Shown here: in pieces, positions 2,400-60,406 of the stretch | Numbering within the stretch: the stretch's first letter is position 1 | How the letters are laid out: every line of letters begins with the position of its first letter | Source of the DNA: Armatimonadota bacterium | Lineage (GTDB): Bacteria > Armatimonadota > HRBIN16 | NCBI GenBank assembly: GCA_026003175.1 | Contig: BPGT01000001.1 | Location: forward strand, 1,278,839-1,342,838 | Direction of reading: 5' to 3' | Length of the DNA: 64,000 nt | The notes under the pieces: generated by a model | Databases searched by the model: none | Told to the model about the DNA's origin: nothing | The model's input: only the letters and a program-made list of their open reading frames with translations | Position numbers and translations under genes: made by a program

Positions 2400-3830
2400 T
2401 TATAGAATGTATTTGCTTAAATCCTCGCTGCGCAGCACATCTTCCAGTTGCTGACGCACATATTCTGCGGTGACGGTCACCGTTTGTCCGGCAAACTCGC
2501 TGGCGCGGAAGGAGATGTCCTCCAGCACGCGCTCCATGATAGTGTGCAGACGTCGCGCACCAATGTTCTCGCTGGTGGTGTTCACCTGCGCAGCGACCGC
2601 CGCAATCTCGCGCACTGCATCGTCGGTGAACTCCAGATTCACTCCCTCGGTCGCCAGCAGCTCTCTGTACTGTTTGACCAGCGCATTTTGCGGTTCGGTC
2701 AGGATGCGCACAAAATCCTGTTCGGTGAGGCTGTCCAGTTCCACGCGAATGGGTAACCGCCCCTGCAGTTCGGGGATAAGGTCGCTGGGTTTAGAAACGT
2801 GGAATGCTCCTGCGGCGATGAACAGGATATGGTTGGTGCGCACCGCCCCAAATTTGGTCATGACGGTAGAACCCTCGATAATAGGCAGCAGGTCACGCTG
2901 CACACCCTCGCGCGACACATCGGGACCGAAACCCTGTTCGCGTCCGGCGATTTTGTCCAGCTCGTCGATGAAGATGATGCCACTTTCTTCGGTACGATGG
3001 ATAGCTTCGCGGATGACCTGTTCGCGGTCAATCAGTTCGCGCGCTGCTTCCTGAGCAAGTATCTGCTTTGCCTCGCGGATGGTTACCTGAGTAGTGCGCC
3101 TTCGTCCACCCATCATACCGCGCAGCATGTCGGGGATGTCCAGCCCCATCTCCTCCATGCCCTGTGGTCCGAAAACCTGTACAAAGGGCACCGGCGGGGA
3201 GGATTGTTCCACCTCTATCTCTATCTTCTCATCGTCCATCGCTCCACTGCGCACACGTTCTATTAACTTCTCGCGCATGCGACGTTCGCGTTCGCGTCGT
3301 TCCTTCGCCGCCAGCGAGGCAGGCTCTTCCTCCTCCTCTTTGAACTCCTCCTCCCACAGCGCACGCACCAGTCGCTCAAACGGCGTGCTCCCCTGAATAG
3401 GACGGCGTGCACGACGAGGCATCAGGCGATCCACGATGCGCTCGATGGCTATCTGCTCAGCGCGCTCCTGCACCTCCTGCATCTTTTCCGCTTCCACCAT
3501 ACGCACGGCGGTCTGCACGAGGTCGCGAACCATCGAGTCCACGTCGCGCCCCACATAGCCGACCTCAGTGAACTTGGTGGCTTCTACCTTGATGAAGGGG
3601 GCTTTAACCAGCTGGGCAATGCGCCGGGCGATTTCGGTCTTGCCTACGCCGGTGGGACCAATCATCAAAATGTTTTTGGGAATGACCTCTTCGCGCAGCT
3701 CCTCGGGCAAGCATTTACGCCGGTAGCGGTTGCGCAGAGCAATCGCGACAGCACGTTTTGCTTTCTGTTGCCCGATGATGTATTTATCCAGCTCCTCTAC
3801 GATTCGCTGGGGTGTGAGGTCTTCTTCCAT
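2400..3830 (-). CDS. hslU: ATP-dependent protease ATPase subunit HslU
   Basis: AAA+ unfoldase ring of the HslUV (ClpYQ) protease; it unfolds substrates and feeds them to HslV. 476 residues from the chosen start. Walker A GPTGVGKT at 58-65, the pore-region motif [14 protein letters not shown], an acidic and arginine-rich I-domain insertion, Walker [12 protein letters not shown], and the C-terminal tail SKYIL that docks into HslV. The frame is open up to 3869, but AAAGGAG lies seven bases before the ATG at 3828-3830 (MEEDLTPQ), and this start leaves a clean 20-base gap to hslV. It lies in the order hslV-hslU-mdh. Confidence 0.96.
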
Positions 3831-48083: not shown

Positions 48084-48518
48084 CTAGATTGGCGGTTCGC
48101 CTGGGGGCAGGGAGAGTGCTTCCACCTCCAGGGTCATCGGGCTGCTCTGGGCGCGTACACCGAAGATGTCCTCGGCTTCTACAGAAACCTGGTACTGCTG
48201 GATGTTGGCGGTGAGGTTTGGGGGCAGGGTGATGCTTGTACGATACACATCCTGCCCCGTGCTATCCATCGCCAGAGAGGAGCGAGAGCCATCTGGCGCG
48301 ACAAGCACAAGCGTCACCGTGCGCACGCCGTTGTCATCGCGTACTTCCACGTTGACCGCTGCCTGTCCGCCTGTAAAGCGCATGCGCGAGGGTTCTATTT
48401 GCAAATTACTGATGCTGGGCGGGGTCATCGGTTGTGCGCCCGACAGGAACATTCCACATCCGCTCAGCCCCAGCATCATCCCTAGCCCCGCGAGTGTGGT
48501 CAAAATGCGTGCTCGCAT
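48084..48518 (-). CDS. Lipoprotein, last gene of the giant-protein operon
   Basis: 144 residues from the ATG at 48518, supported by AAGGAGGAG about ten bases upstream; the frame is open to 48554 but that lies inside the giant gene. Signal peptide with lipobox LSGC, then one Ig-like beta domain (SNLQIEPSRMRFTGGQAAVN, VRTVTLVLVAPDGSRS, YQVSVEAEDIFGV). It begins 14 bases after the stop of the 3,689-residue protein and may anchor or escort it; that is inference from position. Confidence 0.78.
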   Translation of the reverse strand: MRARILTTLAGLGMMLGLSGCGMFLSGAQPMTPPSISNLQIEPSRMRFTGGQAAVNVEVRDDNGVRTVTLVLVAPDGSRSSLAMDSTGQDVYRTSITLPPNLTANIQQYQVSVEAEDIFGVRAQSSPMTLEVEALSLPPGEPPI

Positions 48519-48532
48519 GGCTTCACTCCTCC

Positions 48533-51500
48533 TTATGGCAGTATCAGTTCGCATTCCACGTTCGCTTTAATCCAGTAACCCTTCCACGGCTCCAGTCTGT
48601 TCTGGATGCCCGGTATCAGGCTGGCGTCATAGATGAGCACGTACGAGCCGCGATTGGGGTCATTTGCGTCTTGCTGCCAGCCCCACGCATAATCTTCTAT
48701 CCAGCCCGCCTGTTGCGCTTGCGCCAGAGTCAGTATCTGCTCGTCCTTGCGCACACGTATCTGCTGCACGTCCCACACCACGGCGCCCTGCGCCTGCGGG
48801 ATGCCGAACAGGTTCCAGCCGGGTTGCAGGCGGATGGTACTGGGCGCTTTCACCCCCGACAGCAAGCGGTCTACCGGAGCGGACAGTCGTACCCAGTACG
48901 CTTTGCCCGGTTCCAGAGCGGTCACATCGTTGCCCACGCGGTACGTGCCCGCCACCGGATCCCACCAGGCAATGCGCAGTTGCGTGGGGTCAATACCCAA
49001 CACGCTGGCTGGATTGGCGTCCAGCGGAAGCATCGGGATGGAGATGAGAGAGAGACCTGTCGGGAAGGTGTTGCCCAGCCGCAGCGGCACCACCTCCACG
49101 CTCTGTTGCAGGGTGTTGTCGTACTCGTTCATCTCCTCCACCGTATCATCGGGGTCTACCACCACCGTCAGGTCACGGGTGAGCAGTCCCCGATGCGCAT
49201 CCCACAGCACCGACACCATTTGCTGCTGACCGGGTTGCAGATTATCGATGCTTGCCTCGCCGATGTTCTGCGAGCCGTGCAACAGGCGTACCACCACACC
49301 GCTGGCAGGTTCGTCGCCCTCGTTGACGACCCTCACGCTCAGGCGGGTCTGCCCTTCCGCTTCGTCGGCGAGCAACCGGGTCGGTCGCAGGTTGGGCAAG
49401 CCAATGGCGTTCACCTGTGCCGCGCTGTCCAGAGTCGCCTGCTCTAGCCCGGACTCAGCGACTATCTGGAAGGTATACACGCCCTTCGCCACGAACACGC
49501 GGCTATCGCCCGAGCCGTTCCATGTCACGCTGAACTGTCGGTCACGGGGCTCGAAGGTGAAGCGTCGGACGATGGCGCCTGTGTCGCTCGTGTCGGTTCC
49601 GGCAAACACGTTCACCGTGACGTTGGCAGGCTGCGACAGGTTGAAGCGCAGGGTGACCGCCTCGCGCCCAATCTTGAACTGCTCGCGCGAGAGCGAGACG
49701 CCGGTGATGGTCAGTGCGCCCTGTGCCAGCTGGATCGTTTTCTCCACCACCTGTTCGGTCTGCGTGCCCTGCGCCGGGATGTGCAGGCGGATGGTGTAAG
49801 TGCCTACGGGCAACGGCTGGTCTGCGTCATCTTTGCCGTCCCAACTCAGCTGCTGCGGTGTGGCTGGCATCGGAGCAAGCGCGTGCAGGGTGCGAACCAC
49901 CTGCCCGGCACTATCCAGCACCAGCACCTGCACAGGTGCTTCACCCGTGAGCCTGAACTGTATGTTCACAACGTCGTCGATGCCGTCGCCGTTGGGGCTG
50001 AACGGATTGGGAGCCACCTGCACGTCTTTCATCTCTACAGGAGCGGACAGGTTCACCGTAAACGTCCACTCCGCGCTGCCCACGTTACCCGCCAGGTCGG
50101 CGGCGGAAACCCGCACATGGTGTTCGCCTTCGCTCAGCGCGGATGTGGGCTGATAGCGGAGGGTGGCGCTGGCGGCGTCGTAGGTGGCGGTGACGAGGTT
50201 GCCGTCCACCAGCATCTGCAGGCTGTTCGGGTTGACCATCCCGCTATCCAGCACCCGGGCGAGAATCAGCGGCTGTGCAGAACGCACCGTTTCGCCAGAG
50301 GCGGGCGCAACCGCTATCACCTGTGGCGCGATAGCATCCACGCTGCTCAGCGGTATCCAGCCGGTGGACGCTGTGATGTTATTCTGCAGCAGGCTCACCA
50401 CCACCATGCCTGTGGAGCCGCGTGCCGGCACATGGCTGACGGTGACGGTGAACGGGAACTGCTGACCCGGTGCCAGTGCGGGAATGGAAACCGCCCCTGC
50501 CGATACCAGTTCAAACGCCCCGGATACCTGTATCTGCGCGTTCGCTGGCGAGGAGAGGGCTGCGCCTTCGTTGCGCACTACCACCTGCACCTGCTGCGTG
50601 CCATCTGGCTGCGGTGTGGCTGTGCCGCTGACATACAGCACGGCGGGAACCTGCACGCCCAGCGTCTGCATACGCTGGATTGCCTGTTCCACCTGCGTCT
50701 CGGAGGCAGCGGTGAGCGCGATGGCTTCCTCCAGCGCGTTGTTGTAGGTTTGCACCGCGTTTGCTGCTTGCACGGGGTCTGAAGATTCGATGAATCCGGC
50801 AACCGCCGCCAGCAGCTGCATCCGACGAGCAGTGCCTCGGTCCACGATGTCCACCGCCGCTCCTGCCTGTGCGGAGAAGCTGGGGTCTATGGCGGAACCG
50901 TCCAGCCAGTTCTGGTTGAGCACCTGCTCGCGGGCGCGGATGCGCTCGTTCACCTGCGCGGTGGAGGCGATGAACTCATTCACTGCAGTCTGCAGCTGCT
51001 CGGGAGTAATCTGGTCGCTGTTCATCAGCGCGGCGAGCCGTCGCGCTGCCGCCTCGAACTGCGCCGCCTGGCGGGTGCGTGCTCCGTACACGCCGCGTCC
51101 ACCGGTGCCGGTCAGCCAGCTGGTTATCTCGTTCAGCAGGTTGGGACTCGTCCAGTACTGTATCCAACCGGGTTCCTGTTCGCCAACCAGGTTGTAATCC
51201 CAGATAGCCGAGTGAGCTGCGCCCACACGCCCCCACACGATGGGGGTAGTTACTGCCTGAGCCACCTTGCCTACAGGCAGCAGCCCGTCCGCGACGGAAC
51301 CAATGAAATTGAGCACATGCGCCCACCAAGGTACGTTGCCCAGCAGCACATCGCGCGAGCTGCGCAGGGTATCGTTGAGCCAGCCGGTTAGCAATCCAAA
51401 CGGTTGTCCAATAGCTTCACGCCACTGGCGGTCGTTCTGGATGGTAGCGCGCACTTCCTGGATACGGCTGCGTATCAGAGAGTCGTCCCCAGGCAGCTGT

Positions 51501-54500
51501 CCCGTTTCCCGGACAATCCGGTCTACGGTTGCAAGCTGTGCCAGAGCGTTCGTCTCGTCTCCCTGCCAGCTGATTTCGACAGCAGGCCATACCACCGCCG
51601 ATACCACGCTATCGTATACACCGGTGAGGGAAACGGTGAAGTTATCCTGCACCGCTTGCTGAATCAAGCCGTCGATACTGCCAAAGACGCTGCCAATGAC
51701 CCGTCCTACGAGCTCGTTATCGGTGTTGAAGACACCCTGTTCCACCGTCTTCCACGAGCCGAAAGTGATCGGCAGCTTCTGCAGTAGACCCGTTACCTCA
51801 CCGCGTACCGCGGAGACCAGACCTTCCAGAGCCGCCTGTATACGGGTTCGCTGGGTTGTCAGCGCAGCCACAAAGGCATCCGCAGAGCCGACCGAACCGG
51901 GGAACTCCTGCAGGTAGCGCGTCTTCACCAGGTTCAGGTTGGCGTCGCTCATGCCGTTTTTCAGGATGTTCAGCACGTCATCGTAGAACGGGCGATGGAT
52001 AGCGGGGTCCAGATTCACAAGGCGCATGGTCTCATCCAGCGCACCCTTCGCCAGTTTCTCATTGAGCTTGAACCCCTGGAGGGCGGTGAACGAGTCGGTT
52101 GCCTTTTCGAAGAGTTTGAGCTCACCGGCGAAGAAGAGCAGGATGTCTACAAACGCTTTCACCAGTTCCTCGCCGTACTGCTTTCTGGCTTCATAAAACT
52201 CTTTCAACGCAGGCACTGCCACTTCTAGGCGAGCAGCTGCGCTGAGCAGGCTCTGCAATTTCTGCTTGTCCTGACCGGTTTGCTGTGCCCACTCGCGCAG
52301 GTAGCGGGTCAGCGGTAGATTGGGGAAACCGGTTTCTGCCGTGAATCCTAGACGGAACTTGTCCTGCATGGGTGTCATGACGCGAATCAGGTCCCACACG
52401 CGCTGTTCGAACTGCATCGCCTGGTCGTTCAGCTCCACTGCGGGCTCCGGAGGCGACAGGATAGCGAGGTCGAAGCTGCCCGATGGGTCGGTGTACACAC
52501 GTGGGTCGGTATCATTATCCTGCACGACGGCGCGTATCTGCACGTCGGCGATGGGAGCGTACGGTTTGTTCAGTTGGCGTTCAACGACTATGCCCCGTAC
52601 CGCGCCGGGCAGTTGCGACACCGTCGATCCCTCGGTGGGTAAGGGCGCACTGACGTCCTCGAACCCCAGTTTGCTGTAGCGCAAGAAAGCGTTTTTGTAC
52701 ACAAGGAACCGACGGGTAGCGGTCAGCTGCGGTATCTCCTCATCGGTAGCGGTGACTTCCACGCGGATGAACGGCTCCGTGAGGTTCTGAGGCGGGTTGT
52801 AGCGCACCGCCAGAGGCAGTTCCTGCAGCTGCTCGCCGGTACTGCCTGCGCTCACCTCGATGCGGAAGCGGCGTCCTCTCACAATCGTACCCGTTTCCAC
52901 TGCGGGCAAGCCCGTTTGCGGACGCACCTGTATCTGCAGGTCTTTGCCCAGCGCCGCACCCACCGCGCCGTTAAAGTCCGATCGCCCTAACATGCTTTCG
53001 GGGATGGCGTACACCTGCACGCGCAGGTCTTCCGGCAACAGTTTGAAGTCGTGCGTTTCGGTCTCCGTGCCGCGGCTGTCTATGGTGAGCGCGTATTCGC
53101 CTTCTGCATTCGTGCGGAGAGTGCCTCCGTTCTCCACAACCACCGTGGCGTTGCGCAGGGGTTTCAGTTGCAATGTCTGGTCATCCTGAATTTGCCACGC
53201 CATCACCTTACCACGCAGTTCCTTCAGCCCCTGTCGCAGTTCCACCTCCACGTCGCCTTCGGGGTCTATCTGCTGGTAGCCTGATGCCTCCGCGTGGTAG
53301 CGGATGGTGGTCACCGCCAGCGCGGTGAAGCTCTTTTGCGCGGTCTCAACCGGTGCACCGGGCGGTGTCATCACCGCTTCGTAGCGAGCCTCGACGGTGG
53401 CTTGCAGCTCGCCCGGTTCCTCCACCAGCAACACGAACACGAACTGTCCGTTGCGCCCGACGGCACGCCAGTCTTCGTTGTACGACACGGTGGGCGAGAG
53501 CGTCGTGGGCAGCAGCTTGCGCAGGCTACCCCGCAGGCGCACGATCGCGTTCGTTACAGGTTCTTGAGTCTGCGCATCGAGCACCACGCCCTTAATCATC
53601 ACCGTTGCCGTGCCCTTGAAGGGGATACGGATGGGATTGACAAATTGTCCCGTTTCGGTCATGGGTGGGTCGGTGAAGCGAATGAGTAGCGGTGCGCTCT
53701 TCACCCGCAGATCGCGCGATTGTGCCACCGCACCCTCGCAGCCGGTCGCGGTTGCGGTCGCCCGAATCACGCCGACGAAGTCTCCATCTGGTGTGCTCGC
53801 AATCGCGCGAGGTGTGTTGCGCAGGGTGACTCCAGCCAGAAAGACGCCCGTACCACCGAGCGGTTTCAGCACGACGGTCTGGTCACCGTTATCGAAGTCC
53901 ACCTTGACCAGTGCCTGGCTCAGGTCGCCGTCGCCGCTGATGCGTACCCGCACGTTGCCACGCCAGGGGATGTTGAAAGGCTCCTGTACCGGATCAAAGC
54001 CTGCAAGACCAGCCTCCAGAAAATCTATGCTCTCGATGCGCAGGTTGCGTGGCACCTGCTTGTACAGCTCCTGCAGTCGCTGCTGGGCGATATTCATCGC
54101 CTCGTCCGCACTGCGCGCACAGACGGTGACAATCACATCGCGCATGCACAGCTTCAGCTTGAGGTTGGATATGTTCCAGAAGTGTCCATCGTTGAAGTTG
54201 CTCTTTCGGATGTCCACCCGTCCACCCGGAGGCGTGCCCATCGACACGCTGACAGAGGGCTGGTTGGCGCAGTGCCGAGCGTATATCTCCCTCACCAGCA
54301 CTCTGGAGCCCAGGTTGACCTCGTATAGCTGCGAGTCGGGCGGGCAGTCGGTGTTGACGGTAATCTGCAGAGGAGGCTGGTTGCCCTCCCAGATGCGCAG
54401 GTTGCCTATCGCCCGCGATCTAGCGCGAACCAGAGCCTGTTCCGCTGGGCTGAGCAAACGCACTGTACCAGCAGGCACGCGAGCAGAGCGCGTGTTGTTC

Positions 54501-57500
54501 AGAGCGAATACCGCAGGCGGGATGGAGAACACCTGCACCCCCAGCGGTATCTGGTTCTGCAGTGCGCCGATCTCCACCCCGTTGTAGGAGATGTACATGT
54601 CGAACGGCACCAGGTTTTGGGTTACCAGGATGCTGTTTTCAAACTCCAGCATCGCCTGCTCGATGTTTTCGAATCGCATTCCGCCGACATCTGCTCCCCC
54701 GGAGTAGAGCGGGAACACTTTGAACTGTATCGCCTCACCGGGTGCCAGATAGGCATGGCTGACCTGCGGTTCGATGCCCACCTGACCGTTCACCGAGTCG
54801 TCCGGCGCTACGTTCACGTCCACCGCAGGTTCGCTACCGATGTTGCGGATGCGGTAGGTTTGCACGCGGGTGGTAGGGTCTTCTGCTATCAGGTCTACCA
54901 CCAGTTGCGCCTGTGAGGGGCGCACATGCACGCTAGCTTCGGCTTCATCCGTCATCTGCTCCGGCTCGCCCACGGTACGCGCCGCGAACCGCCACACGTA
55001 ATTGTTGCTGCGTGCGTTCTGGAAGTGGCAGGCAAAGGTGAGGGTGGCGGTGTCGTTCGGCTGGATGATAATCGGTTCGTCGAAGCTTCCCAGACCGATA
55101 AAGCCTGCGGGTGCGTCTTCATAGCTGTTCAGCACGCTCACCTGCACCTGATGCGGGCGGTTATCGTTGTTGCGCAGCGTCACACTGAATCGCTGGTCGT
55201 AGTCTTTGCGCGCTTCGAACTGCATCTGCGCCTGCACGAAGGTGATGCCTTTGGTAACGGTGACGGTACGCTCTTCGCTTTGCGAGGTGCCGTAGGCGTT
55301 GGTGCTGCGTGCGATGAAGAGATAGCGCGCGTTGCGCTGCAGGTTGCGCAGGGTGACGCTGTGCTGAGTGCCGGGCTCCCCGGTGACCGTGCGCCATTCG
55401 GCGTCTGCGGTGCTCCGGTACCGCACCTCAGTGCTGGCAGGAACGTGGGTGTTCCAGCGGATGGTCAGGTCGGTCGTGCCGACCGTGGCACCGTTGACGG
55501 GCGTGAGGTTGGTGATAATCGGCTCGGCGATGATGCGCAGCGTGCGCTGAGCGGATACCTGCAGACCGTACGCGCTGGCGGTGGCGGTGACGGTGAACAC
55601 CACATCCCGGCTGGCGACGTTGCTGGGCACCCGGATGCGCAAACGCTGTTGAGCCTCCTGACCGGGTACCAGACGCAGGCTTATCGCGCTCAGGTCGCCC
55701 CAGCCCTCGGGCAGCCCGGTGACCTCCAGCACAGGAGTCAGCTCCACCTGCCCGTTGTTACGCAGCACGATGTCGATATCCACCGTTTGCCCCGGCGCCA
55801 GAGGCACAGGTGGCTCGGAGACCGAAGCCAGCTCCAGCGCAGGACGGGGCGCGACGTTGATTGCCAGCACCTGCGCCAGTGAGTTGTTCTCTTCGTTGCT
55901 TTCGGCAACGACGTTGTCGGGGTCAATGACCGCCGTGAGCGGGTGGCTGTTGCCCTGAAGGGCGGGCCACTCCACCACGATCTGCCGACTTCCACCCGGT
56001 TCGGGTGCCAGCACGTCTACGTTGCGCTGGAACGACCCGCCAATGCTGATACGTACCGATACGTTGCCCTGATAGGTGGCGCCATTGTTCAACACCTGCA
56101 TCCGCACGCGCACTATATCGCCTTGACGCACCCCCTCTGTCGGCTCGTATTGCAGGTCACCGAAGACGAAGTCAGGAGCCTCCACCGGGTAGTTCACCAC
56201 GTGGTTCAACACGTTGTTGGTGTCATCGCTCTCGGCGATGCGGTTGTCGGGGTCTACCTCAGCGCGAATAGCGCGATCGGCACCGGGGGTGACCGTCCAG
56301 CGCAGGGGGATGTCGGTGGTACCCCCTTCAGGGATGTTGACGTTTGCCTCTACAGGGGGCAGGCGCGTGCCGTCCACCCGTGCCGCCACACTGAGGCGTC
56401 CCTGATACGCACCGGAGCTGCGCACGCGCACCATCACGTTCGCCGTATCGCCTGCAGGCTTGCCTGCGGGCAGGATATCAATGCTCTCCACGGTAAGGTC
56501 CACCGGAGCGACACTCACTGCGAGCTGCTCTTCGGTGGCATTGTTGTCTTCGTTGCTCTCGGAGACGACGTTCTCCGGGTCTACCACAACACGCACCTGT
56601 GGGTTGTTTATCGGGCGGTCAACGCTCCATGCAATGGACACTTCCGTGCTGACGCCCGAATCGAGACCTCCGATAAGCGCTTGCCCCACTGCCTGCCCAT
56701 CCACGAAAAGGCGAACTGGGATGCCCTGCGGGTAGCCGATAGGCAGTCGGAAGTTGCCTCCCTCGTTGCGGATTTGCACGTTGAAGCGGATAGTGCTGCC
56801 GAAGCGCACATCGCCAGGCAGTTGCACCGAAGTCGAGGACAGCACGAAGTCCGGCGGAGGCACTACCGGCAGATCGGTTTCTATGGTGTTATTATCGGGT
56901 TGCGAGTCGCTGATGTCCTCTGGTGATACCCGCACGCGCAGGCGCGTTGCACCCATCGGACGCGCCGTAGACAGGCTGAACCGCTGGTCCAAGCCCGCTA
57001 CCAGGTTCGGGATGCTGGAGGTGCTGGTGGCAAGTACCGCACCGTTGCCGTCCAGATGCTGCAGCACAATCGGCACTGATCCTGCCAGCTGTCCACCGGT
57101 GTTGCGCACGCGCACAGTCGCCACGTATTGCTGCCCCACCTGCGGATTAGTGGGCAGCAGTTCTAAATCCGACAGGGCGACTTCGGGTGCCGGCACATCT
57201 GGCAGGGTGACCTCGCGCACGTTGTTGGCGACGTTGGCTTCGCCCAGCGCCCTGCCGGGGTCTACTATCACCTGCAGACGATGCTGCCCCGGTTGTGCCG
57301 TGTAGTCGATGCGGACAATCTGACTGCTTCCGGGCGGAATGGGCGGCACCAGCTGCACAACCTGCAACCTGGCATCGTCCAAGCGAAACTCCACATTGAC
57401 AGGTGCATTGATCCGTCCCTGACCAACGTTGCGCACCTCCACCGCCACGCTCACTCTCTGCCTCATCGCAAACGTGTCGGGCGAGAAGGTCAGGCTTGCC

Positions 57501-59602
57501 ACCTCCAGGTCGGGGGGTATGATTTCCGGCAGGTCGAGCGAGGCGCGGTTGTTGTCGGTGTTGGCATCGGGCAGACGGAAGTAGGGGTCCGCCACCACCC
57601 GCAGGGTGTGTGTGCCGCTGGTAGCTGTCCAGCTGGCGGAGAGAGGTTGCGACGCGCCCGCTGCCAGTCCATTCAGGTTCAGTAGCGCCACCGAGCCTTC
57701 ATCAATAAGGAACTGCACTGCGATAGCACGCAAGGTTGCGCCGCCCGCGTTGCGCACTACTGCCCGCAGCTGCACGTCCTGTCCGTAAGCAATGTCGGCA
57801 CCGGGCACATGAGAGAGCGATTCCACTATCAGGTCAGGCGGAGCGATGTCGGGGATACGCGCCTCAGCGCGCTCGCGCACCGTGGGATCATCGGAGCGGA
57901 TACCGTTGTTGGTCTCGTCGCTTTCACCCGCTTCGTCCAGGTCGTCCACCTGTGCGCCTACCGTCTGATTCGTGCCCGCGCGCACCTCGAAGGGAATCAC
58001 TACTTCCGTGCTGGCGCCCTGAGCCAGTCCACCGGTCACCCGTGCTATACCGCTGACAGGCATGGGGTTACCCGTCGCGCCCGGCAGCAGGCTCACCCGA
58101 AAATCGTTCAGGGTATCAGCTCCGTTGTTGGTAACGGTCACTACCGCTTCCACGCGCTGACCATCTACTAACCCCTCGGTCGGCTGGATGCGCACACTGC
58201 TGATCACCAGGTCCGGTGCAGGCACTGGCGCAAATTCCAGCAGTTGCGCGTTGTTGCCCTCGCTGGTCTCACTCACCCAGTTATAGTAGTCCGTCACCAC
58301 GCGCAGGCGCGAGTCGTTACCACGCAGGCGTACGGGAATGGCAATGTCTACCACCGCATTTGCCCCCAGGCTGGATACGTCCTGATAGCCCGCCAGCCTT
58401 TCGTTCGCGCCTCCTGAAGAGGCGAACACCGCCACTCGGAACGCCTGCGAAACCGGGTCTACACCCTCATTACGGATTCGGATGTTTGTGGTCACCGTTT
58501 GCCCATCTTTGAAGTTCTCCGAGGGCGTGATGGCGACATTAGCCACCTGCAAGTCACGGTCGGGCACGACGGTGATGGTGGCGCTGTCCTCATCTACACG
58601 TCCCGCGCTGTCGCGCACGCGCACGCTGATCAGGTACTGTCCCAGTGTGTCCCATCGGTAAGGCACCTGCACGCCGGTGGCATCGTCAAACTGCCCGTCG
58701 TTGTCCAGGTCCCATTCGTAGGCGACAATCTGGTCTACCGAATTGGAGGCGGAGGCGTCCAGAATCACCTCGCGTCCTCGTCCTACCGTGCGGTCAGGAA
58801 TCAATGCTTGAATGCCCGCAGCACCACCGAAGAAGAAGGTGAGAGTCACTTCCCACGTTTGTCCGGGCGCCATGTCGCCGATGTTCCACTGCAGTCCGAC
58901 ACCCGCATCCGCAGTGCCTGAGGCGGGGTAGCGTGTTTGGTCATTGAGTTGACCGTCGTCCCAGTCGTCGTGCAACATAAAACTCCATTGCCCCACCCCA
59001 TGATGACTGGAACGGATACTGCCTGTGAAGCCAACCCGGTAGTAGCTATCGTCGTTCATGAAGACCGAGTCAGAACCTGTGTTGTACCAGGCGTAGTCGC
59101 CACCTGCACCTGCGATGTCGAAGTCAATCGTTTGGAAGAAACGAACGTCATGGATGGGCTGAGAGCCGGTGTTGGTGAGTACGTAGGTGATATTGAACTG
59201 GCGCGATGCACCCGGGTAGAACTGCACCCGCCGGATGATGCGCAGGGAGCGTCCGTTCGCACTGTAGGATATGGTCGCTTCCGCCAGGCGGTCGGGCTGC
59301 TGTTCGCGGAAGCCCTGCTCGACCGTCATACTCTCGGAAGGCACGATGCCTCCCCAGTCTGGCGTCCACACGCCGTAATGCTCCAGATAAACGGCATCCG
59401 CGCTCCGCCCCTGTGCATAGCGGAAGATCCATGTATTACTGCTGCGCGGTCCCACCCGGATATCCAGCAGGTCATTTTGCGCCACGAAGTCCTGCCCGTC
59501 CACGCCGCGCGTATCCAGGTCAGGCTTGTCCTGGGCAAAGAGGGTGACCGCTCCTAGCAACCAGATGCTCACCCAGGCAAACGTCAGGAAGGTGGCTCTC
59601 AT
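48533..59602 (-). CDS. Giant exported multidomain protein (3,689 residues)
   Basis: One uninterrupted 11-kb gene. Signal peptide (cut near 23), N-terminal beta domain (about 25-260), PKD domain (about 262-347, LDASASNSVDQIVAYEWDLD), about eight CARDB-like units (starts near 352, 461, 587, 697, 801, 914, 1033 and 1141, many containing APDLVISSVRI-like strands and ending DxxNxVxExxExNN), a NEW3-like unit near 1252, an Fn3-like unit near 1360, several carboxypeptidase-regulatory-like units (near 2000, 2124, 2334), a mostly helical region (about 2390-2985), an Ig-like unit (about 3088), two FlgD-like units (near 3190 with NPFSPNGDGIDDVV, and 3298), another CARDB (3398) and a C-terminal domain with GLSLISIPMLPLD and GWNLFGIP. 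It has no LPXTG, TM or autotransporter end. Probably a surface or extracellular adhesive/stalk protein. Confidence 0.93.
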   Translation of the reverse strand: MRATFLTFAWVSIWLLGAVTLFAQDKPDLDTRGVDGQDFVAQNDLLDIRVGPRSSNTWIFRYAQGRSADAVYLEHYGVWTPDWGGIVPSESMTVEQGFREQQPDRLAEATISYSANGRSLRIIRRVQFYPGASRQFNITYVLTNTGSQPIHDVRFFQTIDFDIAGAGGDYAWYNTGSDSVFMNDDSYYRVGFTGSIRSSHHGVGQWSFMLHDDWDDGQLNDQTRYPASGTADAGVGLQWNIGDMAPGQTWEVTLTFFFGGAAGIQALIPDRTVGRGREVILDASASNSVDQIVAYEWDLDNDGQFDDATGVQVPYRWDTLGQYLISVRVRDSAGRVDEDSATITVVPDRDLQVANVAITPSENFKDGQTVTTNIRIRNEGVDPVSQAFRVAVFASSGGANERLAGYQDVSSLGANAVVDIAIPVRLRGNDSRLRVVTDYYNWVSETSEGNNAQLLEFAPVPAPDLVISSVRIQPTEGLVDGQRVEAVVTVTNNGADTLNDFRVSLLPGATGNPMPVSGIARVTGGLAQGASTEVVIPFEVRAGTNQTVGAQVDDLDEAGESDETNNGIRSDDPTVRERAEARIPDIAPPDLIVESLSHVPGADIAYGQDVQLRAVVRNAGGATLRAIAVQFLIDEGSVALLNLNGLAAGASQPLSASWTATSGTHTLRVVADPYFRLPDANTDNNRASLDLPEIIPPDLEVASLTFSPDTFAMRQRVSVAVEVRNVGQGRINAPVNVEFRLDDARLQVVQLVPPIPPGSSQIVRIDYTAQPGQHRLQVIVDPGRALGEANVANNVREVTLPDVPAPEVALSDLELLPTNPQVGQQYVATVRVRNTGGQLAGSVPIVLQHLDGNGAVLATSTSSIPNLVAGLDQRFSLSTARPMGATRLRVRVSPEDISDSQPDNNTIETDLPVVPPPDFVLSSTSVQLPGDVRFGSTIRFNVQIRNEGGNFRLPIGYPQGIPVRLFVDGQAVGQALIGGLDSGVSTEVSIAWSVDRPINNPQVRVVVDPENVVSESNEDNNATEEQLAVSVAPVDLTVESIDILPAGKPAGDTANVMVRVRSSGAYQGRLSVAARVDGTRLPPVEANVNIPEGGTTDIPLRWTVTPGADRAIRAEVDPDNRIAESDDTNNVLNHVVNYPVEAPDFVFGDLQYEPTEGVRQGDIVRVRMQVLNNGATYQGNVSVRISIGGSFQRNVDVLAPEPGGSRQIVVEWPALQGNSHPLTAVIDPDNVVAESNEENNSLAQVLAINVAPRPALELASVSEPPVPLAPGQTVDIDIVLRNNGQVELTPVLEVTGLPEGWGDLSAISLRLVPGQEAQQRLRIRVPSNVASRDVVFTVTATASAYGLQVSAQRTLRIIAEPIITNLTPVNGATVGTTDLTIRWNTHVPASTEVRYRSTADAEWRTVTGEPGTQHSVTLRNLQRNARYLFIARSTNAYGTSQSEERTVTVTKGITFVQAQMQFEARKDYDQRFSVTLRNNDNRPHQVQVSVLNSYEDAPAGFIGLGSFDEPIIIQPNDTATLTFACHFQNARSNNYVWRFAARTVGEPEQMTDEAEASVHVRPSQAQLVVDLIAEDPTTRVQTYRIRNIGSEPAVDVNVAPDDSVNGQVGIEPQVSHAYLAPGEAIQFKVFPLYSGGADVGGMRFENIEQAMLEFENSILVTQNLVPFDMYISYNGVEIGALQNQIPLGVQVFSIPPAVFALNNTRSARVPAGTVRLLSPAEQALVRARSRAIGNLRIWEGNQPPLQITVNTDCPPDSQLYEVNLGSRVLVREIYARHCANQPSVSVSMGTPPGGRVDIRKSNFNDGHFWNISNLKLKLCMRDVIVTVCARSADEAMNIAQQRLQELYKQVPRNLRIESIDFLEAGLAGFDPVQEPFNIPWRGNVRVRISGDGDLSQALVKVDFDNGDQTVVLKPLGGTGVFLAGVTLRNTPRAIASTPDGDFVGVIRATATATGCEGAVAQSRDLRVKSAPLLIRFTDPPMTETGQFVNPIRIPFKGTATVMIKGVVLDAQTQEPVTNAIVRLRGSLRKLLPTTLSPTVSYNEDWRAVGRNGQFVFVLLVEEPGELQATVEARYEAVMTPPGAPVETAQKSFTALAVTTIRYHAEASGYQQIDPEGDVEVELRQGLKELRGKVMAWQIQDDQTLQLKPLRNATVVVENGGTLRTNAEGEYALTIDSRGTETETHDFKLLPEDLRVQVYAIPESMLGRSDFNGAVGAALGKDLQIQVRPQTGLPAVETGTIVRGRRFRIEVSAGSTGEQLQELPLAVRYNPPQNLTEPFIRVEVTATDEEIPQLTATRRFLVYKNAFLRYSKLGFEDVSAPLPTEGSTVSQLPGAVRGIVVERQLNKPYAPIADVQIRAVVQDNDTDPRVYTDPSGSFDLAILSPPEPAVELNDQAMQFEQRVWDLIRVMTPMQDKFRLGFTAETGFPNLPLTRYLREWAQQTGQDKQKLQSLLSAAARLEVAVPALKEFYEARKQYGEELVKAFVDILLFFAGELKLFEKATDSFTALQGFKLNEKLAKGALDETMRLVNLDPAIHRPFYDDVLNILKNGMSDANLNLVKTRYLQEFPGSVGSADAFVAALTTQRTRIQAALEGLVSAVRGEVTGLLQKLPITFGSWKTVEQGVFNTDNELVGRVIGSVFGSIDGLIQQAVQDNFTVSLTGVYDSVVSAVVWPAVEISWQGDETNALAQLATVDRIVRETGQLPGDDSLIRSRIQEVRATIQNDRQWREAIGQPFGLLTGWLNDTLRSSRDVLLGNVPWWAHVLNFIGSVADGLLPVGKVAQAVTTPIVWGRVGAAHSAIWDYNLVGEQEPGWIQYWTSPNLLNEITSWLTGTGGRGVYGARTRQAAQFEAAARRLAALMNSDQITPEQLQTAVNEFIASTAQVNERIRAREQVLNQNWLDGSAIDPSFSAQAGAAVDIVDRGTARRMQLLAAVAGFIESSDPVQAANAVQTYNNALEEAIALTAASETQVEQAIQRMQTLGVQVPAVLYVSGTATPQPDGTQQVQVVVRNEGAALSSPANAQIQVSGAFELVSAGAVSIPALAPGQQFPFTVTVSHVPARGSTGMVVVSLLQNNITASTGWIPLSSVDAIAPQVIAVAPASGETVRSAQPLILARVLDSGMVNPNSLQMLVDGNLVTATYDAASATLRYQPTSALSEGEHHVRVSAADLAGNVGSAEWTFTVNLSAPVEMKDVQVAPNPFSPNGDGIDDVVNIQFRLTGEAPVQVLVLDSAGQVVRTLHALAPMPATPQQLSWDGKDDADQPLPVGTYTIRLHIPAQGTQTEQVVEKTIQLAQGALTITGVSLSREQFKIGREAVTLRFNLSQPANVTVNVFAGTDTSDTGAIVRRFTFEPRDRQFSVTWNGSGDSRVFVAKGVYTFQIVAESGLEQATLDSAAQVNAIGLPNLRPTRLLADEAEGQTRLSVRVVNEGDEPASGVVVRLLHGSQNIGEASIDNLQPGQQQMVSVLWDAHRGLLTRDLTVVVDPDDTVEEMNEYDNTLQQSVEVVPLRLGNTFPTGLSLISIPMLPLDANPASVLGIDPTQLRIAWWDPVAGTYRVGNDVTALEPGKAYWVRLSAPVDRLLSGVKAPSTIRLQPGWNLFGIPQAQGAVVWDVQQIRVRKDEQILTLAQAQQAGWIEDYAWGWQQDANDPNRGSYVLIYDASLIPGIQNRLEPWKGYWIKANVECELILP

Positions 59603-59632
59603 GCTCGCATCCTCCTCAGTCCGTGTTTCGTG

Positions 59633-60406
59633 CTATCGCTTCAGCACGAAGGGAACGACTACTCGCGCTTGCTCCATCTCCTCAGTAACCGCTGTGACCT
59701 CTAACAGATAGGCTCCGGCGGGCAGTGCAACGCCTGAAGCGTCTCTGCCGTCCCACTGCACATTCTGCATCCCTGCGCTGCGGGCGACCGCCTTTTCTAT
59801 CTCGCGTATCATCTTGCCGCTAGCGGAAAGCACCCGCACCTGTGTGCTGGCAGGCTGATTGAGTATAAACTGCAAGCCCAGTGCACTGCCGCGGGTCTGC
59901 TGCACCTTGACTTGTGAGATACGCAGGGGCAAACGGGCATCGGTGTCCATCTCCACCGCAAACTGCCGACGTGTGATGCCTCTGCCACTGCGGAAGGTAT
60001 AGGAGGGTGCGGTGCGCATCCACAAACGGCGCCCCGTTTCCATATCCACCAGGTGCAGGTTGACCTGTTTGGGAACCTTTGCCACATTGTCCCAGCGCAG
60101 TACCACGTCGGCGTCCTCGACGTCCGTCTCCACACTGAACTCCCAGCGGGTGCGGGAACGGCTGAAGGCGCGGATGTCCACCGAGCCACCGTGCGCAAAG
60201 GTCAAGCGAACTCGCGCGGGATTATCCGGGGCGGAAGGGGGATCTGCAAAAGCGCGGGAGACTTTGCTCTGTCCAAATAGATTATCTGCATCGCGATAAG
60301 TGCCTACCTGAACGCTAAGGCGCACACTCCATGCACGCGACGCCTCGTTCTGGGCGAGCGCAGCGCTCGCTATCAGCGCGAAGCCAAGCAACAAACAGCG
60401 CACCAT
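59633..60406 (-). CDS. Exported protein with FlgD-like Ig domain, first gene of the giant-protein operon
   Basis: 257 residues. Signal peptide (cut after ALA), a beta-rich N-terminal domain (SVRLSVQVGTYRDADNLFG), and a C-terminal FlgD-like unit: NQPASTQVRVLSASGKMIRE, NVQWDGRDASGVALPAGAYL, ending VVPFVLKR. The same FlgD-like unit occurs twice in the giant protein that begins 30 bases downstream. CAGGAGGAG precedes the ATG. Likely partner or assembly factor for the giant protein; inferred from operon and shared domain. Confidence 0.82.
   Translation of the reverse strand: MVRCLLLGFALIASAALAQNEASRAWSVRLSVQVGTYRDADNLFGQSKVSRAFADPPSAPDNPARVRLTFAHGGSVDIRAFSRSRTRWEFSVETDVEDADVVLRWDNVAKVPKQVNLHLVDMETGRRLWMRTAPSYTFRSGRGITRRQFAVEMDTDARLPLRISQVKVQQTRGSALGLQFILNQPASTQVRVLSASGKMIREIEKAVARSAGMQNVQWDGRDASGVALPAGAYLLEVTAVTEEMEQARVVVPFVLKR

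What the first reader, a model, noticed from the sequence alone, without database searches (positions are those of the whole stretch)
48084..60406. Three-gene operon built around a 3,689-residue exported modular protein
One uninterrupted gene fills about 11 kb between a FlgD-domain protein and a small Ig-domain lipoprotein, gaps 30 and 14 bases. The modules (PKD, about nine CARDB-like, Fn3, carboxypeptidase-regulatory, FlgD-like, C-terminal domain) look like a surface fibre or adhesin, but no known export system or anchor is encoded nearby. Shared FlgD-like units in genes 1 and 2 suggest they assemble together. Domain calls are by eye; function is inference.
Basis: partly seen in the sequence, partly recalled or inferred. 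Interest (0 to 1): 0.75.

Follow-up and report, generated by a model that had tools for sequence, protein, structure and literature searches.

The report
Giant exported protein with detached tail
A hot-spring bacterium makes a 3,689-residue exported protein whose last C-terminal piece, fused on in nearly all related proteins, is made instead as a separate small protein from the same operon, which suggests that the two pieces meet again outside the cytoplasm.

Summary
In detail: three adjacent genes, all under purifying selection, with the giant reading frame intact in two independent relatives. The trio occurs in 7 of 10 genomes of one genus of Armatimonadota class HRBIN16 and nowhere else among 51 other-family genomes.

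Gene 1 is not a generic "FlgD-domain protein". It is a free-standing copy of a C-terminal module ("tail": a domain absent from Pfam plus a FlgD-type Ig domain) found in 127 of 151 Armatimonadota genomes. In the proteins examined, the tail sits at the extreme C-terminus and directly follows a second unnamed domain ("CTD"), on cargo as different as subtilases, WD40 and LVIVD propellers and Ig arrays. In this genome there are ten CTDs and ten tails. Nine pairs are in cis. The one unpaired CTD is the end of gene 2 and the one unpaired tail is gene 1. Separate trees of both halves place them in the same lipoprotein-linked family, and gene 3 is that family's lipoprotein.

Best reading: one ancestral cargo-CTD-tail gene was split, and the tail now acts in trans to assemble or anchor the giant at the outer membrane (the trans action and the location are inferred). 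The type IX secretion components SprA and PorU are absent, so the export route is unknown.

The parts
59633..60406 (-). Gene 1, 257 aa: signal peptide (about 1-18), then the complete tail module and nothing else
   Evidence: Tail profile match E 4e-108, residues 20-257, ending at the stop; FlgD_ig 9.4e-14
59912..60349 (-). Gene 1 residues 20-165: tail N-domain (beta sandwich, no Pfam match)
   Evidence: Homologous to the penultimate domain of the fused paralogues, 30-37% identity; modelled at high confidence in a fused paralogue
59636..59899 (-). Gene 1 residues 170-257: terminal FlgD-type Ig domain ending in KR
   Evidence: PF13860; fold match to the Vpr C-terminal domain, Z 13.1, and PorU C-terminus, Z 11.0 (on a fused paralogue)
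48533..59602 (-). Gene 2, 3,689 aa giant cargo protein with signal peptide (1-24)
   Evidence: ORF; signal-peptide hydropathy peak; dN/dS 0.11
58808..59530 (-). Gene 2 residues 25-265: N-terminal domain of unknown family
   Evidence: 88-95% identical in four orthologues; no convincing PDB or Pfam match
58568..58804 (-). PKD domain, residues 267-345
   Evidence: PF18911 7.9e-11
55883..58555 (-). Eight tandem CARDB domains, residues 350-1240
   Evidence: PF07705 1.3e-108; repeat scan
55262..55798 (-). NEW3 (NPCBM_assoc) and Fn3/purple-acid-phosphatase-N-like domains, residues 1269-1447
   Evidence: PF10633 and PF16656 at or over cutoff, PF00041 below cutoff
52613..55255 (-). Residues 1450-2330: unassigned; the first 190 residues also occur in an own-genome paralogue and in G036
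50648..52585 (-). Residues 2340-2985: helical region seen only in gene 2 orthologues
   Evidence: Alignment A3; AlphaFold2 all-alpha but pLDDT 51; no relative in 51 genomes of other families
49451..49972 (-). Two internal FlgD_ig domains, residues 3211-3384
   Evidence: PF13860
49115..49360 (-). Ninth clear CARDB, residues 3415-3496
48536..49126 (-). CTD, residues 3493-3689: doubled GWN/GYW domain, the normal neighbour of the tail, here the protein's end
   Evidence: 23-42% identity to the CTDs of fused paralogues; the only CTD in the genome without a tail in cis
48084..48518 (-). Gene 3, 144-aa lipoprotein (lipobox LSGC) with one Ig-like domain
   Evidence: paralogues directly follow tail genes in 10 of 11 cases, the eleventh at a contig start

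Best explanation
The operon is a split version of an Armatimonadota gene pair: a secreted cargo protein ending in CTD-tail, followed by a small Ig lipoprotein. Shown: the cargo (gene 2) keeps the CTD as its C-terminus, while the tail (gene 1) is a separate protein with its own signal peptide, encoded first in the operon, and the lipoprotein (gene 3) follows as usual. Inferred: all three reach the periplasm by Sec; the tail binds the CTD of gene 2 non-covalently and does in trans what it does in cis elsewhere, that is assemble or anchor the C-terminal end of the giant at the outer membrane, with the gene 3 lipoprotein as membrane partner. The long PKD/CARDB stalk and the helical region would then extend from the cell or span the envelope. 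Whether the CTD-tail also drives passage through the outer membrane is open.
For: Own genome: ten CTDs, ten tails, nine pairs in cis, the remaining CTD and tail being genes 2 and 1. Six genus genomes: 55 CTDs, 49 with a tail directly behind; five unpaired ones are the five gene 2 orthologues and one is at a contig edge; G002, which lacks the trio, has 8 of 8 in cis. Independent trees: gene 1 with 12 tails of the lipoprotein-linked family (SH-aLRT 97), and the gene 2 CTD with the same family (95). In a fused paralogue the CTD and tail are well modelled (pLDDT 87, pTM 0.83) with a low-confidence linker at residues 195-205, and the split falls there. Gene 3 paralogues sit directly after tail genes. 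The trio keeps its order while flanking genes differ. Purifying selection acts on all three. Omp85 proteins indicate an outer membrane. The closest fold match of the terminal domain is Vpr, whose assembly domains mediate extracellular fibril contacts (PMC10657474).
Against: No direct evidence for binding, localisation or expression. Fusion elsewhere suggests, but does not prove, interaction of separate chains. Gene 2 keeps two FlgD_ig domains of its own, which might replace the tail. About half of the own-genome cis tail genes have no lipoprotein gene next to them, so the lipoprotein is not always needed. Trees are quick searches with SH-aLRT only.
Confidence: 0.6

Rival explanations
1. Gene 1 is an independent small secreted protein, or a remnant of an upstream tandem tail gene, with no functional tie to gene 2; gene 2 simply lost its tail.
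For: Tail genes do occur in head-to-tail clusters (L026, L080). In G036 a tail-bearing 993-aa gene precedes a giant gene.
Against: Gene 1 is complete, has its own signal peptide in all five genomes that cover it, and evolves at dN/dS about 0.1. In the six genus genomes searched with the CTD profile no unpaired CTD exists away from this locus except one at a contig edge. Both halves trace to the same subfamily.
Confidence: 0.15
2. The trio stays in the periplasm: the giant is a flexible tether or scaffold between inner and outer membrane, and CTD-tail is a lipoprotein-docking module rather than an export signal.
For: No dedicated outer-membrane channel lies in the operon, and gene 3 is a lipoprotein. 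Other large cargo such as propellers would fit either place.
Against: Subtilases with CTD-tail would be more usual outside the cell; 3,689 residues with eight tandem CARDB domains is long for a periplasmic protein (inference).
Confidence: 0.2
3. The giant is a type IX secretion cargo and the FlgD-type tail its sorting signal.
For: The terminal Ig domain shares its fold with the PorU C-terminus (Z 11.0), and weak CHU_C and Bac_Flav_CTERM matches exist.
Against: SprA is absent in 121 Armatimonadota genomes, where only stretches of about 100 residues match. PorU is absent; its profile only finds FlgD-type domains. TIGR04131 scores 19.5 against a cutoff of 35.
Confidence: 0.03
4. The giant is a polymorphic-toxin-like delivery protein whose helical region is the active part.
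For: Weak WXG100-like match of the helical region (E 0.008).
Against: The helical region is internal, has no toxin-family match, and no immunity gene is recognisable.
Confidence: 0.02

Closest known systems
Type IX secretion C-terminal domains (types A and B)
   Same: A shared Ig-like domain at the extreme C-terminus, ending in a basic residue, on many unrelated cargo proteins
   Different: No SprA or PorU; the tail is preceded by its own N-domain and CTD; TIGR04131 cutoff not reached; here the domain is supplied on a separate chain
Vpr (Bacillus S8 subtilase) assembly domains
   Same: Terminal domain has the same fold (8jmw, Z 13.1, 25% identity); Vpr is secreted and at least two tail cargos are S8 subtilases
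   Different: Vpr is from a monoderm and its domain is in cis; no CTD counterpart was matched
Archaeal and bacterial CARDB/PKD stalk proteins (from own knowledge)
   Same: Signal peptide plus long arrays of CARDB, PKD, Ig and Fn3-type domains
   Different: A CTD-tail and a split tail are not described for them as far as I know
FlgD hook-cap protein
   Same: FlgD_ig domain
   Different: No FlgD N-terminal part; the FlgD equivalog model scores 40 bits against a cutoff of 230

Membership tests
Armatimonadota CTD-tail cargo family (defined here) | CTD directly followed by tail at the extreme C-terminus of one chain | tested here: not met
   CTD ends gene 2 and the tail is gene 1; all other own-genome members are in cis. 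The trio holds all parts but on two chains, hence a split variant.
Armatimonadota CTD-tail cargo family (defined here) | Common descent of CTD and tail with the lipoprotein-linked subfamily | tested here: met
   Tail tree 97, CTD tree 95 (SH-aLRT)
Armatimonadota CTD-tail cargo family (defined here) | Small Ig lipoprotein gene directly downstream (lipoprotein-linked subfamily) | tested here: met
   Gene 3 with lipobox LSGC; paralogues in the same position
Type IX secretion cargo | SprA translocon in the genome | tested here: not met
   TIGR04189: no match over cutoff in own genome or in 121 of the phylum
Type IX secretion cargo | PorU sortase in the genome | tested here: not met
   NF033707 finds only FlgD-type domains
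Type IX secretion cargo | C-terminal sorting domain over curated cutoff | tested here: not met
   TIGR04131 19.5 of 35 bits, internal position
Flagellar FlgD | FlgD equivalog score | tested here: not met
   NF005176 40-44 bits against cutoff 230
CARDB-containing surface stalk proteins | CARDB array with signal peptide | tested here: met
   PF07705 nine stretches, 1.3e-108; signal peptide
CARDB-containing surface stalk proteins | Exposure on the cell surface | not testable with these tools
   Needs fractionation or labelling
Two-partner secretion or autotransporter | N-terminal TPS domain, C-terminal beta-barrel, or adjacent TpsB | tested here: not met
   No such Pfam match in gene 2; no barrel protein among the three genes

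The most novel reading that the evidence does not exclude
CTD-tail is the signal of an undescribed outer-membrane export or anchoring route used throughout Armatimonadota in place of type IX secretion, and this operon is a natural experiment showing that the signal works in trans on a giant cargo.
Probability: 0.3. Interest if true: 0.85.

Novelty: new variant of a known kind. Interest (0 to 1): 0.6.

Why it matters
How Armatimonadota, a diderm phylum common in hot springs, put large proteins on their surface is unknown; the type IX translocon was not found in them. A phylum-wide C-terminal module shared by proteases, propellers and Ig arrays is a strong candidate signal. A locus where nature has cut this module off and supplied it separately makes the question testable: does the separate piece bind, and is it needed for location? 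It also gives a case of gene fission in which both halves stay under strong selection.

Tried and rejected
Two apparent further splits in the own genome (L026 621+274 aa; L030 four pieces) and one in G001 (L071) were rejected as frameshifts: intact 891-aa and 2,356-aa relatives exist. Helical region: AlphaFold2 on seven sequences gave pLDDT 51, so no fold search was run; Pfam gave nothing, and the WXG100 hit is too weak to use. N-terminal domain: no PDB or Pfam relative. Foldseek on the fused CTD-tail model gave mostly generic Ig and GH2 matches; no listed match covered the CTD, and it was not searched by itself. LptD by PF04453 was not found, but that model rings only in two proteobacterial controls. 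Promoter and terminator scans gave nothing useful: six promoter-like sites against 2.7 expected, none in the 145 bases before gene 1 on its strand, and terminators no better than shuffles. Paper searches found no description of this module, and papers naming HRBIN16 deal with metabolism and ecology.

Full report
Observation. The three genes are real and placed as described. On the minus strand: gene 1 at 59633-60406 (257 aa), gene 2 at 48533-59602 (3,689 aa) and gene 3 at 48084-48518 (144 aa; the longer 156-aa ORF starts inside gene 2). Gaps are 30 and 14 bases, and each start has a GGAGG-type site. The giant frame is open at 3,688 and 3,717 aa in two independently assembled relatives. Codon comparison over 3,687 codons gives dN/dS of 0.10-0.11; genes 1 and 3 lie mostly at 0.1-0.15, with gene 3 rising to 0.36 in its most divergent pairs. 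The frame is therefore neither a chance ORF nor an assembly join.

Where it occurs. The trio was found in 7 of 10 genomes of one genus (partial at contig ends in three, frameshifted in G004) and not in 51 genomes of other families in the phylum. Named relatives are hot-spring and geothermal assemblies, among them Bacterium HR16 (HRbin16) and a 'Chthonomonadia' bin; class HRBIN16 is inferred from this. In some assemblies a cystathionine-lyase-type gene and dnaJ follow as in the window, in others the neighbours differ, but the order gene 1, gene 2, gene 3 is kept wherever the contig reaches.

What gene 1 is. It consists of a signal peptide and one complete module of about 240 residues, made of a beta domain without a Pfam family and a FlgD-type Ig domain. 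The same module closes long paralogues in the genome, where it directly follows a domain homologous to the last 190 residues of gene 2. I call these tail and CTD. A tail profile matches 127 of 151 Armatimonadota genomes. In the proteins checked the tail ends 0-6 residues before the stop and, apart from gene 1, one stand-alone case (L072) and frameshifted cases, is preceded by the CTD. The bodies in front differ: S8 subtilases, LVIVD propellers, WD40 propellers, carboxypeptidase-regulatory and Ig arrays. Such a pattern, one C-terminal module on many cargos, is typical of sorting or assembly modules.

The split. Counting CTDs and tails genome-wide gives the central result. The own genome has ten CTDs and ten full tails. 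Nine pairs lie in cis (one of them interrupted by a frameshift). The only CTD without a tail is the end of gene 2, and the only tail without a CTD is gene 1. In six genus genomes there are 55 CTDs: 49 have a tail directly behind, five are the gene 2 orthologues and one is cut by a contig edge. G002, which lacks the trio, has 8 of 8 in cis. The tree of tails puts gene 1 with 12 tails, most of them followed by a lipoprotein gene (SH-aLRT 97), and the tree of CTDs puts the gene 2 CTD with the same family (95). The simplest history is fission of one ancestral cargo-CTD-tail gene whose lipoprotein gene stayed in place, with the tail moved to the front of the operon. AlphaFold2 of a fused paralogue (pLDDT 87, pTM 0.83) shows CTD and tail joined by a low-confidence linker (residues 195-205), and the split falls in that linker.

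Gene 3. Its paralogues in the genus, 11 hits, lie immediately after a tail gene in ten cases, the eleventh being at a contig start. Some tail genes, notably the phylum-wide cluster in L026/L080, have none. Gene 3 is therefore the cognate lipoprotein of one tail subfamily.

Mechanism, with status of each step. Shown by sequence: signal peptides on genes 1 and 2, lipobox on gene 3, strong selection on all three, shared ancestry of the split halves with a fused family. Inferred: genes 1 and 2 bind through tail and CTD; the complex is anchored by or near the lipoprotein at the outer membrane (two Omp85 proteins are encoded); the PKD and CARDB stalk holds the helical region away from the membrane. 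Unknown: whether the complex crosses the outer membrane, and by what. Type IX secretion is excluded as far as SprA and PorU profiles can tell. The terminal domain has its closest solved relative in the C-terminal domain of Vpr (Z 13.1, 95 residues, 25% identity), a protein whose two assembly domains are mainly responsible for contacts within extracellular fibrils (PMC10657474). This makes an assembly role reasonable, but Ig folds are common and the GH2 matches at Z 10-11 show how little specificity the fold carries.

What remains unexplained. Residues 1450-2985 of gene 2 are conserved in the genus and match nothing, apart from a 190-residue start shared with one own-genome paralogue and with a giant protein in G036. 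The helical part is predicted all-alpha at low confidence.

Verdict. The surface-fibre idea is plausible and untested. The module itself is, as far as the paper searches show, undescribed, which is where the interest lies.

Noticed in passing
L080:351-19499, L081:791-19501, L085-L088: A cluster found across several families of the phylum: tail proteins (subtilase, carboxypeptidase-regulatory arrays and others), an exported protein of about 600 residues with weak LpoB/MreC matches, and a protein with an N-terminal Big_1/Invasin_D3 domain. Candidate for a core export or assembly locus.
   Followed up: partly
L083:4041-8942 and L089:5198-10086: In two genomes of another family a tail protein is followed by a lipoprotein and an 870-880-aa protein ending in F (barrel-like by eye); in one of them it has a stretch of about 100 residues resembling SprA 591-692.
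   Followed up: partly
L072:9086-9964 (G019): A second stand-alone tail protein with a signal-like N-terminus, in another family, divergent from a TamB gene and without a CTD giant in view.
   Followed up: partly
L032:4590-17462 (G036): A distant analogue of the trio: 993-aa CTD-tail protein, 2,793-aa giant sharing part of gene 2 (1336-1635), then a 450-aa lipoprotein-like protein. The giant's C-terminus looks toxin-like by eye; no Pfam match.
   Followed up: partly
L090:1-4491 (G106) and the f5 family: Tail reduced to its N-domain, ending the protein without the FlgD-type Ig domain, so the N-domain may be the core of the module.
   Followed up: no
L076:2575-16743 (G010): A 4,722-aa protein with CTD-tail fused in cis, larger than the giant of this window.
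   Followed up: no
L026:9372-12048, L030:7486-16302, L019:4409-15476: Frameshifts in long secreted genes of the own genome and of G004, intact in relatives: sequencing errors of the assemblies or recent lesions.
   Followed up: partly
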